Positions 1-10,365 of a DNA stretch of 10,431 bases are shown here, piece after piece. The stretch covers positions 1 through 10,431 of the forward strand of contig JAAYAO010000129.1 in the NCBI GenBank assembly GCA_012719335.1, written 5' to 3'. The notes beneath the pieces are model-generated. The model was not told the DNA's origin and searched no databases. It was given only the letters and a program-made list of their open reading frames with translations. Position 1 is the stretch's first letter. Every line of letters starts with the position of its first letter. Both the position numbers and the translations under genes were made by a program. This stretch comes from Propionibacterium sp. (GTDB taxonomy: Bacteria; Actinomycetota; Actinomycetes; Propionibacteriales; Propionibacteriaceae).

Positions 1-32
1 CAGGCACGGCGGAGGTCGGGGGGAATCACGTC

Positions 33-67
33 GGTTGAGCGGGGCCCGTTGGGCCTGTGTTGAAACC
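33..67 (-). repeat. R2 interspersed repeat, inverted copy
   Basis: This 35-bp unit read on the minus strand starts GGTTTCAACACAGGCCC and ends GCTCAACC. It matches the units at 2120-2154 and 2217-2251 in length and in its fixed ends. The ends (GGTT...AACC) and the central GGGCC/GGCCC blocks are complementary, so the unit can fold as an imperfect hairpin. It lies 43 bp beyond an R1 copy, in the same relative order as at 2016-2154. Confidence 0.75.
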
Positions 68-110
68 AGTGGGGCGATGAGGGCGAAGTCGTCCATTGTG
101 GTGACCGTCG

Positions 111-185
111 TGACTGAAGCCTCAAGGATGACGGCCACCGCGACCACTATGGCTTCGACAGCGTCCAGGCTTGCGGGTTCAGTCA
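111..185 (-). repeat. R1 75-bp palindromic-ended repeat, copy A (inverted)
   Basis: Exactly 75 bp, bounded by TGACTGAA and its perfect inverted copy TTCAGTCA. The inverted ends extend imperfectly to about 16 bp (TGACTGAAnCCnCAAG). Aligned without gaps to copy D (2277-2351), it differs at only about seven positions, which is strong evidence for a repeat family. It is the only R1 copy in this orientation. Homology to copy D continues into the spacer before R2 (a GTCAC..ATGG..TTCGC pattern). Confidence 0.85.
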
Positions 186-298
186 TTGGTCGGCAGGTGC
201 CGCACTCGACGTTTCCGGGTGCACCGCCGGGGACGGTGATGCCGATGGGAGTGCGTCAGGCGCTGAAGCCCGGGTCACGGTGCAGGAATGGGCGTGAG

Positions 299-337
299 TC
301 ATCCACAGGAAGAAGGGGACGGCGAGAGTTCTCCACA
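299..337 (+). promoter_or_regulatory. Two DnaA-box-like sites upstream of the AbiEi-like gene
   Basis: TCATCCACA (299-307) and TTCTCCACA (329-337) each differ by one base from known DnaA-box forms (TTATCCACA or TTGTCCACA). They are on the same strand, 30 bp apart, and end 47 bases before the start codon at 384. The first site is identical to one arm of the palindrome at 2651-2670 upstream of the deaminase gene. Binding by DnaA is inference from sequence similarity only. Confidence 0.3.
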
Positions 338-383
338 ATTGCCTCGGTTCCGGGGGAAGTTTCGTGGCTGGGTGCCCACCGTC

Positions 384-1241
384 ATGGGTATGAGGATCGT
401 TGACTTGAGAATCCCGGCCCGGGACCAGTTGGGCAATGTGGTGTGCACGTCGGTGCTGCAGGCCAACGGCGCAACCCCCGCCGACATCCGCACCTGGGTG
501 CGCCGGGGCGAGATCACGCGGTTGCGACAGGGCTGGTATGCCTTGGCGGAGGCCGATCCGGACGTGGTGCGGGCGGTGCGGGCCGGGGGAGTGCTGGGCT
601 GTGCCTCGGCGCTCACCTTCTACGGCGGCTGGGATCTGCACGACAACCGGTTGCACAGCTATCGCACCGGCTGGGCGCAACGGGAGCCCCTACCCAGGCT
701 GCCGTCCTGTCCCGCCCCATTTCCGCGCCGTCGGATGAACCGGGCCGTGGTGCCGCTGGAGCTGGCCGTCGCCCAGGCCCGGCTGTGCCTGACGACCGAG
801 CAATTGGTCACCCAGGTGGAGTCGTTGATGACCGGCCGCTGGATCACCCCCTCGAAAGCCGCCGAGTTGCTCGGCAACCTCGCGCACAAGCTGGACATCT
901 CCGACTCCGGCACCGAAACGATGGTGCGGATGCGCCTTCGAGGCCGGGGTATCAAGCTGCGGCCGCAGGTGCACATCCCGGGCGTGGGGCCGGTGGACTT
1001 CCTGATCGGCGACCGACTGGTGCTCGAAATCGACTCACAGGCACACCATCGCAGCGCGTCGGCCTATCACCGCGACCGGCAGCGAGACCAGCGTCTCGCG
1101 GCGATGGGGTACCTCGTGATCCGGGTGACCTGGGAGCAGGTGTTCTTTCAGTGGGGTGAAGTGGACGCGGTGCTAACCACGTTGATCGCCGGGCGGCGGC
1201 ATCTGGACCGCCGCTCCCGCGCCCGAAGCGCCGCTGCCTGA
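384..1241 (+). CDS. AbiEi-like winged-helix / DUF559 endonuclease-fold protein
   Basis: A 285-aa protein of a type common in actinobacteria. Residues about 20-55 resemble the N-terminal winged-helix of AbiEi-type antitoxins (TPADIRTWVRRGEITRLRQG, followed by WYAL). Residues about 175-270 match the DUF559/Vsr-like PD-(D/E)XK nuclease fold: E178 in SGTE, D205 in PVDFLIG, then 215-217 in VLEID, a histidine pair at 221-222, and YHRDRQRDQRLAAMGY followed by the VIRVTW strand. The third catalytic position reads ExD rather than ExK, so cleavage activity is uncertain. No AbiEii-type nucleotidyltransferase toxin is adjacent, so it is not shown to be half of a toxin-antitoxin pair. The start could be ATG 384, ATG 390 or GTG 372; the last has a purine-rich GGGGGAAG 13 bases upstream. 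The reading frame remains open to 288, but that extension does not resemble the family. The last 69 bases overlap the convergent DUF3592-type gene. The exact cellular role is unknown. Confidence 0.8.
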   Translation: MGMRIVDLRIPARDQLGNVVCTSVLQANGATPADIRTWVRRGEITRLRQGWYALAEADPDVVRAVRAGGVLGCASALTFYGGWDLHDNRLHSYRTGWAQREPLPRLPSCPAPFPRRRMNRAVVPLELAVAQARLCLTTEQLVTQVESLMTGRWITPSKAAELLGNLAHKLDISDSGTETMVRMRLRGRGIKLRPQVHIPGVGPVDFLIGDRLVLEIDSQAHHRSASAYHRDRQRDQRLAAMGYLVIRVTWEQVFFQWGEVDAVLTTLIAGRRHLDRRSRARSAAA

Positions 1242-1676
1242 GCGTCCTCGGGGGAGTCGGGGCCCGGGCGGTTTGAACGAGACGGTGACGATGATCGCGA
1301 TGGCCAGAAACACGATGCCCATGCCGCCGAGCAGCACCACCACGAACCATCGGTCCCAGAAGGTGTCGACGTAAGCGCTGCCCGGGTCTCCGGGCGGGTA
1401 GGCCACGGGCACGTCAGCGCCGATCGGCTTCGGATTCGAGGATGCAACGCCGCTGCGGATCTCGAATCGCCGGCCGTCCTCGGCCTGAAACTCGATGATG
1501 ACGTAGGCGGTGTCCCCGTCATTGCTCCACCGGTGTTCCACCACGACACCCATCGTCCGAACGTGGTCCTGGGTGCCGGTCTGCCGCAGCGCGAAAAGGC
1601 CCGCGAGCACCAAGAGAATCAGTGCCACCCCACCGAAGATGTAGAAGAACAGGTTGCTCGACCTACCCGCTGCCAT
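1173..1676 (-). CDS. DUF3592-type two-helix membrane protein
   Basis: A 167-aa protein with one membrane helix near the N-terminus (LFFYIFGGVALILLVLAGLF) and a second near residues 110-134 (WFVVVLLGGMGIVFLAIAII). The extracytoplasmic stretch of about 75 residues between them includes VVEHRW, YVIIEFQAEDGRRFEI, VPVAYPPGDPGSAYVDTF and W. This helix-beta-helix plan, with the V-x-Y-x-P-x-P/D and A-x-V/I-D-x-F-W segments, is typical of DUF3592 proteins, whose function is unknown. The tail is Gly/Ala/Pro-rich and cytoplasmic. ATG 1676 is preferred because a TACAGT box ends 7 nt before it; ATG 1682 and an upstream start at 1715 are possible. The 3' 69 bases run antisense to the end of the AbiEi-like gene. 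Confidence 0.72.
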   Translation of the reverse strand: MAAGRSSNLFFYIFGGVALILLVLAGLFALRQTGTQDHVRTMGVVVEHRWSNDGDTAYVIIEFQAEDGRRFEIRSGVASSNPKPIGADVPVAYPPGDPGSAYVDTFWDRWFVVVLLGGMGIVFLAIAIIVTVSFKPPGPRLPRGRSGSGASGAGAAVQMPPPGDQRG

Positions 1677-1682
1677 GGGCAT

Positions 1683-1688
1683 ACTGTA
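1683..1688 (-). promoter_or_regulatory. Candidate -10 box for leaderless transcription of the DUF3592 gene
   Basis: TACAGT on the minus strand fits the actinobacterial TAnnnT -10 consensus. Its last T lies 7 nt before ATG 1676, which places the transcription start on or next to the start codon. No -35 hexamer is evident. The same geometry recurs at three other genes in this window. Confidence 0.4.
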
Positions 1689-1866
1689 CGGCCCGGGTTC
1701 CCTGCGGGGGTGCACTTCGCGCCGGAACCAGAGAAGAGCCCGCGAAGCCCGTCACCTCGCTGAGGGTTGCCTGCCGGCGAGTCCGGGTCCCGGTGTTCCG
1801 CTCAACCGCGGTACACGGGCTGCGATCGTGATGCCGACGAGCTAGGGCCACCCCGAGCACTCGTAA

Positions 1867-1941
1867 TGACTAAGACCGCAAGCCTGATCGCTGCCGAAGC
1901 CGTATTGGTTGCGATGAGCGTCATTCTTGAGGGTTCAGTCA
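1867..1941 (+). repeat. R1 75-bp repeat, copy B
   Basis: Aligns over all 75 bp without gaps to the other R1 copies. Its left end is the most diverged (TGACTAAG), while the right end keeps TTCAGTCA. It shares GAAGCCGTATTGGTTGCG with copy C, whereas A and D share GCCATAGTGGTCGCGG, so the four copies fall into two subfamilies. No R2 unit follows before copy C. Confidence 0.8.
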
Positions 1942-2015
1942 TCACAGTGGGCGCCGGGGGCTGGACCGAGTGGCGGCGGCAAGGTGTTCGCTCTTGACCT
2001 CCGCATCTTCGTTGG

Positions 2016-2090
2016 TGACTGAAACCGCGAGCCTCAGCGCTGTCGAAGCCGTATTGGTTGCGGCGGCCGCCATTCTTGAGGTGTCAGTCA
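2016..2090 (+). repeat. R1 75-bp repeat, copy C
   Basis: Full-length R1 with left end TGACTGAA and a diverged right end (GTGTCAGTCA). It belongs with copy B by the shared GCCGTATTGGTTGCG core. An R2 unit begins 29 bp downstream, giving an R1-spacer-R2 cassette. Confidence 0.8.
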
Positions 2091-2119
2091 TAGTGGTCGA
2101 GTTGGCTTGGCTTCCTGCT

Positions 2120-2154
2120 GGTTTCGACACGGGCCCTACGGGCCCTGCTCAACC
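2120..2154 (+). repeat. R2 interspersed repeat
   Basis: A 35-bp unit beginning GGTTTCGACACGGGCCC and ending GCTCAACC, with a second GGGCCC block giving an internal hairpin around the TAC. It is the cleanest R2 copy. Similar short palindromic intergenic units are widespread in actinobacterial genomes. Confidence 0.75.
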
Positions 2155-2216
2155 GGCGGATTGAATGGTACGGATTGCATCCTTGAGGGCACAGTGGGCG
2201 CTCTCATTGTCGTGGT

Positions 2217-2251
2217 GGTTTGGACACGGGAACTACGGGCCCTGCTCGGCC
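2217..2251 (+). repeat. R2 interspersed repeat, diverged copy
   Basis: Same 35-bp length and order as 2120-2154, but with GGTTTGGACACGGGAAC at the start and GCTCGGCC at the end. The first GGGCCC block is broken, so pairing is weaker. It lies 25 bp before R1 copy D. Confidence 0.65.
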
Positions 2252-2276
2252 GGCGTGATTGCCCCGTTCTACGCCG

Positions 2277-2351
2277 TGACTGAAAACGCAAGCCTCGACA
2301 CTGTCGAGGCCATAGTGGTCGCGGTGGCCGTCATTCTTGAGGGTTCAGTCA
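2277..2351 (+). repeat. R1 75-bp repeat, copy D
   Basis: Full-length R1 with perfect TGACTGAA/TTCAGTCA ends, closest to copy A. An internal GGCCA...TGGCC pair adds to a possible long imperfect hairpin. An R2-like unit follows 50 bp downstream. Confidence 0.85.
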
Positions 2352-2366
2352 TTCTTGGGGCTTCAG
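2331..2366 (+). repeat. 18-bp tandem duplication of the R1 right end
   Basis: TCATTCTTGAGGGTTCAG (2331-2348) is followed directly by TCATTCTTGGGGCTTCAG (2349-2366) and then TCA. Sixteen of 18 positions are identical. The second half extends copy D with an extra terminal motif, so copy D effectively has two right ends. Confidence 0.8.
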
Positions 2367-2401
2367 TCACAACCATGGGCGGTTCGCTCTCAACGTCCCG
2401 A

Positions 2402-2459: not shown

Positions 2460-2609
2460 GGCGTACTGGCCTCGACTGTCACCTTCTTGAGGGTTCAGTT
2501 TTCTGGGTGGGTGCCGGGGTCGGGTGTCGGCGGACGTGGCCGACTTGGGTTGCGGGCGGGCGCGCCGGAACCGAATGCTGCTGATGCGGGTGGCCAGCGA
2601 CAGGTAAGT

Positions 2610-2713: not shown

Positions 2714-3202
2714 ATGATCACCGACGTTGACTTTGGCCACTTGGAGCGGGCGGTCGATTTGGCCGAGGCAGCGCTCACGGCGGGGGACGAGCCCTTCGGG
2801 TCGGTGCTGGTCTCGGCGACCGGCGAGGTACTTTTCACCGACCACAACCGGGTCTCCGGTGGAGACCGCACCAGGCACCCGGAGTTCGCGATCGCTCGCT
2901 GGGCCGCCGAACACCTCACTCCGCAGCAACGGGTGACCAGCACCGTGTACACCTCCGGCGAGCACTGCCCGATGTGCGCAGCGGCCCACGCCTGGGTTGG
3001 GCTGGGGCGCATCGTGTACGCGTCGTCGTCCGAGCAGCTCACCGCTTGGCGTGCCGAGATCGGCGCCCCGGATTCCCCGGTCGCTCCGTTGCCGATTCAG
3101 CAGGTGGCTCCGGGGCTGACCGTGCACGGCCCCGAGCCTCGGCTCGCCCAGCGGGTCCGCGGATTGCATGAACGACGCCGGCGGGAGTCGCCGCATGACT
3201 GA
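2714..3202 (+). CDS. Nucleoside/cytidine deaminase-family zinc enzyme
   Basis: A 162-aa protein of the cytidine/deoxycytidylate deaminase superfamily, which hydrolytically deaminates a base, nucleoside or nucleotide using a zinc-activated water. Visible motifs are DEPFGSVLV (residues 25-33), the zinc/proton-shuttle motif H55-P-E57 in RHPEFAIARWAAEHL, and the second zinc motif C85-P-M-C88 in TVYTSGEHCPMCAAAHAWVG. The HPE form and the GEHCPMC context fit the group annotated simply as nucleoside deaminases, near guanine deaminase and TadA, so the substrate cannot be fixed; it is too unlike TadA to call it tRNA-specific. The length is normal. The start is set by ATG just after TAGGGT. The last 88 bases belong to a 96-bp direct repeat whose second copy lies beyond the stop codon. 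Confidence 0.85.
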   Translation: MITDVDFGHLERAVDLAEAALTAGDEPFGSVLVSATGEVLFTDHNRVSGGDRTRHPEFAIARWAAEHLTPQQRVTSTVYTSGEHCPMCAAAHAWVGLGRIVYASSSEQLTAWRAEIGAPDSPVAPLPIQQVAPGLTVHGPEPRLAQRVRGLHERRRRESPHD

Positions 3203-3306
3203 ACTGCACGGCTGACCGTGCACGGCCCCGAGCCTCGGCTCGCCGAACGGCTTCGCGGATTGCATGAGCGCCGCCGGCGGGAGTCACTGCGCGACTGAAC
3301 CGTACG
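3115..3306 (+). repeat. 96-bp tandem duplication of the deaminase 3' end
   Basis: Unit 1 is 3115-3210 and unit 2 is 3211-3306; a third unit appears to begin (GCTGAACCG) at 3307. By direct comparison 84 of 96 bases match, with the first 34 identical. The period is 32 codons, so the second unit keeps the deaminase frame: after the TGA at 3200 it would encode LTVHGPEPRLAERLRGLHER and RRRESLRD before another TGA at 3296. Unit 2 is therefore an untranslated fossil of the C-terminus, unless readthrough occurs. Confidence 0.9.
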
Positions 3307-9095: not shown

Positions 9096-9101
9096 TGTCA
9101 A
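9096..9101 (-). promoter_or_regulatory. TTGACA -35-like element in the IS end
   Basis: A perfect TTGACA on the minus strand spans the transposase stop codon. No -10 is found at 16-18 bp, so it is unlikely to drive the neighbouring operon. In characterised IS110 elements a promoter is formed when the two ends join in the circular intermediate; an end-located -35 facing outward fits that arrangement. Confidence 0.35.
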
Positions 9102-10192
9102 GCGGCGATGAGCATGGGTTCGGGTTGGTTGTGTGGGGTGTTGCTTGCCGCGGGGTGGGCTTGGTTCAGGGTTCGCCAGATAGTGCGGGCGAGATAGGTT
9201 TTCAGGGCTCGGTAAGCGCGTTTCTTGTTCTTGCCGTCGGGGCAGCGTCGGGTGATGTAGTCCTGGGTTTCGGGGAGCCGGCAGCGGCTGATCATGATGG
9301 AGTGCAGGGCCCGGTTGAGGCGTCTGTCGCCGCCGCGGTTGAGTCGGTGGGCGTGGGTGTTACCGGAGTGGACCGGGATCGGGCTGGTCCCGGCGATCGC
9401 GGCGAATGCCGCGGCGGTACGGATCCGGCCGGGGTGGGACCACACGGTGTAGATGATCGCGGCGTTGATGATCCCGACCCCGAACAGTGTGAGGAGTTCG
9501 GGGACGTGGCGGGTGACGAACCCGCGGAGGTGTTTCTCGTTGGTCTTGAGCTGGTGGTCGATGGTGCCGATCTCGCGGGCGTAGTCGATCGCGAGGGTGC
9601 GGATCGTGGCCATGTGGTCGGGTTCGTGACGGGCCCGCCAGGCCGCGATTTGGCGGATCGTGGCCCGGCTCAGCCCGTGTCGGGCGTCGATGCCCAGGTC
9701 GTGGACCCGCAGCAGAGCGAGTAGGGCGTTGAGGGTCGCGGTGCGGGCGGTGGTGAGTTGATCGCGGCGGGTCAGGAGTGCTTGGACCGCGGCCCGGTCC
9801 CCGTCGGCACGGCGATCACGCAGCGCGGTGAGGGGTTGGGCCGCGGTGGTGCGCGCAGCCAGGATCGCGTCGGCGGGGTCGGTTTTGCCGGTGCCGCGGA
9901 TCCGGGCCACCGAGGGGGTGGGGGCCTCGACCACCCGGTATCCCGCCGCGGACGCGGCCCGGGCCAGACCGGCGCCGTAGGAGCCGGTGCCCTCGGCACT
10001 GATCACCACCGACTGGTCCCCGGTGTGGTGGGTGATCCAGGCCAGGGCCCGGGTGATCCCGGTGATCGTGGTCGGCAACGTGATCTGGGCCACCACCGCG
10101 CCGGTCGCGGTGCTGATCACCCCATAGGAATGGGTACGGGCGTGGGTATCGACCCCCACGACGAACCTGTACGCATCTGCCACGATGGTCAT
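9098..10192 (-). CDS. IS110-family DEDD transposase
   Basis: A 364-aa transposase (recombinase). The N-terminal RuvC-like domain carries D15 in VVGVDTHARTHSYGV, E68 in ISAEGTGSYG, and D105 with D108 in GTGKTDPADAILAART, giving the DEDD set. A helical linker (about 120-225) precedes the C-terminal Tnp domain: PELLTLFGVGIINAAIIYTV, then AAAFAAIAGTSPIPVHSGNT with the putative catalytic serine S276 in HSGN, then RLNRGGDRRLNRALHSIMIS. The frame is intact, so the element may be active. The start ATG 10192 has AGGAG 9 nt upstream; a longer frame to 10285 is not family-like. The short 3' sequence after the stop and the longer upstream region match the IS110 (rather than IS1111) subgroup, in which the guide RNA is encoded upstream of the gene. 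Confidence 0.95.
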   Translation of the reverse strand: MTIVADAYRFVVGVDTHARTHSYGVISTATGAVVAQITLPTTITGITRALAWITHHTGDQSVVISAEGTGSYGAGLARAASAAGYRVVEAPTPSVARIRGTGKTDPADAILAARTTAAQPLTALRDRRADGDRAAVQALLTRRDQLTTARTATLNALLALLRVHDLGIDARHGLSRATIRQIAAWRARHEPDHMATIRTLAIDYAREIGTIDHQLKTNEKHLRGFVTRHVPELLTLFGVGIINAAIIYTVWSHPGRIRTAAAFAAIAGTSPIPVHSGNTHAHRLNRGGDRRLNRALHSIMISRCRLPETQDYITRRCPDGKNKKRAYRALKTYLARTIWRTLNQAHPAASNTPHNQPEPMLIAA

Positions 10193-10204
10193 GGCGTTGT
10201 TCTC

Positions 10205-10365
10205 CTGTTCTGGTGGACGAACGGCGTCAGCCGGTGTCGGCCCGGGACAGCGGAAACACCACGAGGCAGGACTGTAATGAGTCACACCCCCTCTGCGGGG
10301 GTGGACAGGCTTCTGATCAAGCCACCGTGGTGGGTGCCCAGGGCCGGCACCGGCACCCCATCGAT
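10205..10365 (-). ncRNA. Candidate IS110 bridge RNA
   Basis: Upstream of the transposase start, on the same strand, is a non-coding stretch with several stems: CACCCCC/GGGGGTG (10285-10291 and 10297-10303, 5-nt loop), GGGTGCC/GGCACCC (10332-10338 and 10352-10358, 13-nt loop, with an alternative inner pairing), and GGTGT/ACACC (10233-10237 and 10256-10260). IS110-group elements encode a structured bridge RNA of roughly this size at this position, whose internal loops pair with donor and target DNA. The RNA's ends and loop pairings cannot be assigned from the sequence alone, so this is a positional and structural inference. Confidence 0.4.

What the first reader, a model, noticed from the sequence alone, without database searches (positions are those of the whole stretch)
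111..2351. Four copies of an exactly 75-bp repeat (R1) with inverted ends
Copies at 111-185 (inverted), 1867-1941, 2016-2090 and 2277-2351 align without a single gap and share TGACTGAA/TTCAGTCA ends extending imperfectly to about 16 bp. They split into two subfamilies (A/D and B/C) by their core sequences. Fixed length, inverted ends and several intergenic copies suggest a small non-autonomous mobile or REP-like element that I cannot match to a named family.
Basis: partly seen in the sequence, partly recalled or inferred. Interest (0 to 1): 0.72.

Follow-up and report, generated by a model that had tools for sequence, protein, structure and literature searches.

The report
77-bp mobile palindrome scattered between genes
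A 77-base, nearly mirror-image DNA sequence occurs about 70 times in one bacterial genome, almost always outside predicted genes, and a second genus of the same family appears to carry its own version with mostly different letters but the same length and layout, so it is likely a tiny mobile element that would be moved by a still unknown enzyme.

Summary
The repeat is real and larger than reported. The unit is 77 bp (RTGAC...GTCAY). The window's genome (2.83 Mb, 536 contigs) holds 67 good copies, 57 of them exactly 77 bp, plus a few weaker ones. Of 72 hits, 69 lie outside predicted ORFs. Most similar non-clustered copies have unrelated flanks (10 of 14 pairs). One other genome of the family (G138, another genus) has at least 19 copies of a 77-bp repeat of the same layout but mostly different sequence. 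Conservation mirrors between the arms, but arm pairing is not above shuffled arms, unlike REPINs. No RAYT-type Y1 transposase was found in either genome, no clear target duplication, and no larger element with these ends. Best reading: a non-autonomous interspersed element, dispersed anew in each genus, whose inverted halves are probably read as duplex DNA by an unidentified enzyme. It is REPIN/MITE-like but fails tested defining features of both. Mobility is inferred; enzyme and host function are unknown.

The parts
110..186 (-). 77-bp dyad repeat, copy A
   Evidence: 91% identical to copy D over 75 bp, flanks unrelated
1866..1942 (+). 77-bp dyad repeat, copy B
2015..2091 (+). 77-bp dyad repeat, copy C; B and C form a pair 149 bp apart, and their surroundings resemble the pair on contig C109 (141 bp apart)
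2276..2352 (+). 77-bp dyad repeat, copy D
2352..2370 (-). solo outer end of the repeat directly next to copy D (weak match)
   Evidence: (E 0.5 on its own), read directly
2484..2499 (-). further solo outer end, TTCTTGAGGGTTCAGT (weak match)
   Evidence: E 0.82 on its own

Best explanation
The 77-bp sequence is likely a non-autonomous interspersed element whose two inverted 38-bp halves abut, and which was probably dispersed between genes by an unidentified transposase or recombinase that would read the two halves as duplex DNA. Shown: about 70 copies of nearly constant length, almost all outside predicted ORFs; homology that stops at the unit's ends in 10 of 14 pairs of similar non-clustered copies; mirrored conservation of both halves without compensatory pairing above shuffles; a second genus with a dispersed 77-bp repeat of the same layout. 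Inferred: that the two genera's repeats are related, that dispersal was by an enzyme acting in trans, that each genus amplified its own master sequence, and that some copies later multiplied locally by tandem duplication. Unknown: the enzyme, and whether the host uses the sites. No pair of non-clustered exact-length copies reaches 95% identity, so recent spread is not seen.
For: Copy number and length: 139 strand matches at about 70 places with model R1 (150 of 2653 first-look candidates scored, so a lower bound); 67 of 72 profile hits are good copies (57 of 77 bp, 9 of 78, 1 of 74). Place: 69 of 72 hits outside predicted ORFs. Unit-level dispersal: of 14 pairs of exact-length copies at least 400 bp apart or on other contigs and at least 85% identical, 10 have both 30-bp flanks at 50% identity or less, for example C282/C258 92% inside and 33/40% outside, and window copies A/D 88% inside and 37/30% outside. 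Complete units: of 130 half-site matches in the genome only 4 stand outside a complete copy (150 of 3227 candidates scored). Duplex-type dyad: per-site conservation is far from uniform (chi-square 735 on 76 df; 8 sites unchanged in 57 copies) and mirrors left to right (rho 0.66; G138 0.84), while arm pairing is not above shuffled arms (own, 28 of the 41 copies then in hand, 82.9% against 84.6%; G138, 17 copies, 85.2% against 85.7%). Second genus: G138 has 17 aligned copies and 2 more places; the half profiles match best in register, permutation P 0.0015. The own model hits only own and G138 among 147 genomes, the G138 model only G138 among 194.
Against: No transposase or recombinase was linked to the repeat. 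No clear target-site duplication: 72 combinations of size and border per genome, largest z 2.6. No precise empty site: the genus has no second genome in the set; joined flanks gave 12 alignments across the junction, 2 to the copy's own contig and 10 of 39-54 bp at 78-82%, which I do not take as empty sites; the gaps of relatives at the SCO1664-like/mshC-like site differ by more than one insertion, and a dyad score alone does not set this copy (23 of 38) apart from relatives' gaps (14-22). Uneven conservation with no near-identical dispersed copies (1 of 1581 pairs at 90% or more, none at 95%) could also mean copies held by selection for a host function. 31 of 67 copies lie within 300 bp of another, and neighbours are more alike (0.83 against 0.71), so local duplication made part of the number. 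The G000-G138 link rests on one weak hit (38.5 bits) plus equal length and layout; that copy was found by similarity, per-pair profiles correlate only weakly (rho 0.25, P 0.13), and R2 did not hit G000 (24 of 5421 candidates scored). One G138 copy folds into a strong ssDNA hairpin (-40 kcal/mol), so a hairpin role there is not excluded.
Confidence: 0.5

Rival explanations
1. REPIN-like element: the single strand folds into a long hairpin that a Y1 (RAYT/TnpA-REP) transposase copies; the gene was lost or missed.
For: Layout of two inverted conserved blocks around a spacer, nearly always complete, as passages on REPINs describe (PMC3116915). Inner mismatches A.G and A.C kept in 43 of 57 copies each (copies were turned by these same letters, which inflates the count; turned by the central letters instead, A.G or its mirror C.T stood in 28 of 36). 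The four window copies and one G138 copy fold better than the mean of their shuffles (z -1.7 to -11). A relative with GGGGACGGTTCC palindromes (G007) has two Y1 transposase genes.
Against: No Y1_Tnp hit in G000 (90.5% complete) or in G138 (estimated 100% complete). Compensatory changes, called common in REPINs, are not above shuffled arms here. No GTAG within 6 bases outside the unit (0 of 133 flanks).
Confidence: 0.2
2. Host sites: the repeats are binding sites of a chromosome-organising or regulatory protein and are kept by selection, not by mobility.
For: Eight sites unchanged in 57 otherwise diverged copies, conservation mirrored left and right; no recent dispersed copies; no arm covariation.
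Against: The arm letters of the copies differ between the two genera while the layout stays, which, if the repeats are related, needs either re-amplification or lock-step change of many sites. Not found under these models in the other sampled relatives, few candidates scored per genome. Most similar non-clustered copies lie in unrelated flanks.
Confidence: 0.17
3. Transcribed RNA element or bidirectional terminator.
For: Palindrome; 21 of 50 copies with two called neighbours lie between convergent genes.
Against: Convergent excess not significant (21 of 50 against 43 of 148 gaps, Fisher P 0.12), 10 of 50 called as divergent (crude gene calls, which missed the DUF3592 gene beside copies B-D). 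No covariation; no Rfam match in the window; G.U pairs not above shuffled arms.
Confidence: 0.08
4. MITE: internally deleted remnant of an insertion sequence whose ends are the 77-bp unit's ends.
For: Terminal inverted repeats of about 20 bp; nearly fixed length.
Against: No clear target duplication; of 130 half-unit matches in the genome only 4 are not part of a complete copy (a parent sharing only the outer 20 bp could be missed); the IS110-type transposase in the window belongs to a family without such ends (recalled).
Confidence: 0.05

Closest known systems
REPINs / REP elements mobilised by RAYT (TnpA-REP); passages read in PMC3116915
   Same: Two inverted conserved blocks around a variable spacer, intergenic, many copies, mostly complete doublets
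   Different: No Y1 transposase hit in either host, no compensatory arm changes above shuffles, no GTAG tag near the ends, dyad continues through the centre
CGTC-tagged REPs (passages read in PMC3733652; its Table 1 marks them as not associated with transposase genes)
   Same: Palindromic, no associated transposase
   Different: Those have 8-9 bp stems and 4-5 bp loops with a CGTC end; here a 77-bp unit with RTGAC or GTGCAC ends, CGTC within 6 bases outside only 10 of 133 ends
ERIC / RU-1 and RU-2 (search listing only: 127-bp and 168-bp intergenic small mobile sequences, PMC2759123) and YPAL (recalled)
   Same: Dispersed intergenic palindromes without own enzyme (recalled in part)
   Different: Other size and other hosts (enterobacteria); sequence relation not tested
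MIRU of mycobacteria (recalled only)
   Same: Short intergenic repeats; a 77-bp type exists (recalled)
   Different: Recalled as lacking dyad symmetry; not tested here

Membership tests
REPIN/REP with RAYT | inverted pair of conserved blocks around a spacer | tested here: met
REPIN/REP with RAYT | Y1 (RAYT) transposase in the genome | tested here: not met
   0 hits for PF01797 in G000 and G138; of 15 genomes only G007 has hits (2); G000 is 90.5% complete
REPIN/REP with RAYT | compensatory changes across the stem | tested here: not met
   not above shuffled arms
REPIN/REP with RAYT | GTAG-type tag at the ends | tested here: not met
   0 of 133 flanks within 6 bases outside the unit; element ends read RTGAC
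CGTC-REP | CGTC tag with 8-9 bp stem and 4-5 bp loop | tested here: not met
   10 of 133 ends have CGTC within 6 bases outside; unit is 77 bp
MITE of an IS | terminal inverted repeats | tested here: met
MITE of an IS | target-site duplication | tested here: not met
   66 own and 17 G138 copies, sizes 2-9, nine border shifts, largest z 2.6 of 72 tests per genome
MITE of an IS | autonomous element with matching ends | tested here: not met
   4 of 130 half-unit matches outside complete copies, three of them read as truncated copies; draft genome, 90.5% complete
Rfam RNA element | match to a curated family | tested here: not met
   whole window, 0 matches at gathering scores
ERIC / YPAL | sequence and length of the family | not tested
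   listed length of RU-1/RU-2 differs (127/168 bp); no sequence comparison run
MIRU | sequence, lack of dyad symmetry | not tested
   recalled only; search listed no paper describing it in the terms needed

The most novel reading that the evidence does not exclude
A class of 77-bp duplex-read dyad repeats that keep length and layout between genera but rewrite their letters in lock-step with a genus-specific DNA-binding enzyme: a mobile or chromosome-marking system without RAYT, without hairpin pairing constraint and without any larger parent element.
Probability: 0.2. Interest if true: 0.7.

Novelty: new variant of a known kind. Interest (0 to 1): 0.42.

Why it matters
The best-explained short palindromic repeats of bacteria, REPINs, are tied to RAYT transposases acting on hairpins. 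Here a repeat of similar outline occurs in two genera, one genome being estimated complete, with no hit for that enzyme and no co-variation of the arms, so some other enzyme or function would have to spread and keep it. The same length with different letters in two genera makes the search for a co-varying protein gene a defined task.

Tried and rejected
Small ORF: the 75 bp are open in one frame in the window copies, but 10 of 67 copies have other lengths and the invariant sites follow the dyad, not the codons (read); rejected. RNA hairpin from G.U excess: an apparent excess of G.U over A.C in one orientation (94 against 53) is what shuffled arms also give (131 against 131.6). Helical phasing of cluster spacings (141-260 bp) looked suggestive, but many clusters are local duplicates; not tested. 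Plasmids: no match to either version; the phage and E. coli collections were not searched with the repeat. Viral contigs: 13 stretches with the exact 16-mer end, none with a full unit. Named genomes: an exact 25-mer pattern gave none (the own genome may be left out there); the second scan, with the deaminase of 2714-3199, hit many phyla and did not name the organism. Family scan with copy D as DNA: 4 of 197 genomes, the 3 others with short partial matches. A dyad scan of sampled stretches of 14 relatives plus G138 gave many chance hits (115 in the own contigs outside copies at the same threshold) and a few strong palindromes of other sequence; the output was cut and no further family could be established. 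Literature: searches returned no paper; one listed four papers, none opened; two listed known REP/ERIC papers, of which passages were read in PMC3733652, PMC2267715 and PMC3116915. This repeat was not seen in those passages, but most papers are not held and none was read whole.

Full report
Observation. The conserved unit is 77 bp, two bases longer than reported, mostly with a purine at the left and a pyrimidine at the right end. The whole genome (G000, 2,832,586 bases in 536 contigs, 90.5% complete) holds about 70 copies. Model R1, built from 28 of the 41 copies then in hand, gives 139 strand matches, with 150 of 2653 candidates scored, so this is a lower bound. A profile search of the 46 contigs that hold them (438,535 bases, window included, two contigs cut at 20,000 bases) gives 72 hits, of which 67 score at least 25 bits: 57 are 77 bp, 9 are 78 and 1 is 74.

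Anatomy. Oriented consensus: gTGACtgAAacCgCAAGcaTg.gcg.cgcCGAAGCCATA.TGGtCgcgGc.cgcccCAtgCTtGcGgtTTCaGTCA.. Two outer 20-bp blocks, a variable spacer on each side and an inner imperfect palindrome make a dyad over the full length. Conservation is uneven (chi-square 735 on 76 df), 8 sites are unchanged in 57 copies, and left and right sites mirror each other (rho 0.66, P 6e-6). An inner A.G and A.C mismatch stands in 43 of 57 copies each, a count inflated because copies were turned by these letters; with the central letters as guide, A.G or its mirror stood in 28 of 36. Arm pairing is not higher than after shuffling one arm (82.9% against 84.6%, 499 of 500 shuffles at least as high), so pairing between the arms is not what is conserved; each half is conserved on its own. 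This is what a dyad read by a protein dimer on duplex DNA would give (inference). As single strands the window copies fold modestly better than shuffles (z -1.7 to -3.8).

Distribution in the genome. 69 of 72 hits are outside ORFs called by a simple codon score; of the 50 with two called neighbours, 21 are convergent, 19 tandem and 10 divergent, not significantly different from all gaps for convergent sites (P 0.12). The caller missed the DUF3592 gene at 1176-1715 that Pfam supports, so the classes are rough. 31 of 67 copies lie within 300 bp of another; neighbours are more alike (0.83) than others (0.71), so local duplication adds copies. Among 14 pairs of non-clustered copies with at least 85% identity, 10 have both flanks at 50% identity or less; one of these ten (C289/C113) looks related in its right flank by eye if a gap is allowed, and four pairs of the C351/C113/C289 group share flank sequence. 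Homology thus mostly ends at the unit's ends. There is no clear target duplication (largest z 2.6 in 72 tests per genome). No dispersed pair among the exact-length copies reaches 95% identity, so recent movement is not seen.

Occupied and less occupied site. One copy lies between a SCO1664-like gene and an mshC-like gene (names recalled; the second has a class I tRNA synthetase-type domain, the first no Pfam match). The protein search covered 77 genomes and hit 45. Of 29 relative loci held, 6 did not contain the second gene and 23 could be measured: 20 have a gap of 10-172 bp, 3 read 947-1344 bp, while G000 has 296 bp, which includes the 77-bp unit and what reads as a second repeat. The start of the second gene was set by alignment. 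This fits insertion but is not a precise empty site, and a joined-flank search in the sequence at hand found none.

Second genus. R1 hit one of 146 other family genomes, G138, weakly (38.5 bits, E 5.7e-6; at most 32 candidates scored per listed genome). Searching G138 with that copy showed a dispersed repeat of its own. 17 copies were aligned, consensus GTGCACGAAgGGGGCC...GGCCCC.TTCGtGcaC; model R2 built from them adds two places, and all 24 of its rows span 77 bases. Half profiles of the two genera are more alike in register than after permutation (P 0.0015) and than at any shift tried, with the caveat that the first G138 copy was found by similarity; per-pair profiles alone correlate only weakly (rho 0.25, P 0.13). 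Arms do not co-vary in G138 either. R2 found nothing in 193 other genomes, G000 among them, with 24 candidates scored in each genome listed, so distant versions would be missed.

Enzyme. PF01797 (Y1 transposase) has no hit in G000 or G138; of 15 genomes only G007 has it, the genome whose sampled stretches carry GGGGACGGTTCC palindromes, which serves as a positive case. Half-unit model R3, built from 40 of 114 halves, gave 130 matches (150 of 3227 candidates scored), 4 of which (C518, C337, C350, C259) lie outside complete copies; C518, C337 and C259 read as truncated copies, and C350 is a short end match beside a complete copy. There is no sign of a longer element with these ends, though one sharing only the outermost bases could be missed. 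The IS110-type transposase at 9101-10285 of the window has no shown link. Other transposase families were not searched.

Verdict. A family of interspersed 77-bp dyad repeats, likely non-autonomous mobile DNA dispersed separately in at least two genera. It works like REPINs or MITEs in outline but fails tested features of both. The mobilising enzyme and any function remain unknown. 

Noticed in passing
window 2113-2158, 2210-2255, 2418-2463, 29-69 (-): A second interspersed repeat, GGTTTCGACACGGGCCC...GCTCAACCGGCG, lies between copies of the 77-bp unit; similar sequence stands in the SCO1664-like/mshC-like gap, on C518 and on C259.
   Followed up: partly
window 3114-3305: A 96-bp tandem duplication (88% identical) over the 3' end of the deaminase-like gene 2714-3202.
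   Followed up: no
window 9098-10285 (-): IS110-type transposase gene (PF01548, PF02371).
   Followed up: no
L289 3886, 11639, 14465 (G007); L307, L308: Long palindromes with GGGGACGGTTCC-like ends in a relative that also has two Y1 transposase genes, a likely REP/RAYT pair.
   Followed up: partly
L297 15056, L298 3893 (G020): Two similar palindromes around CTGCGCGAAGTCGCAGGATC / CTACGTGGAGTCGCAGAATC in a relative with no Y1 transposase hit.
   Followed up: no
L101 1-3060 (G000 C71): Two adjacent paralogous genes (ends KTHCVFEPQYARNA and KTHCVFEPDYARNT), each followed by one copy of the 77-bp unit, as if gene and repeat were duplicated together.
   Followed up: no
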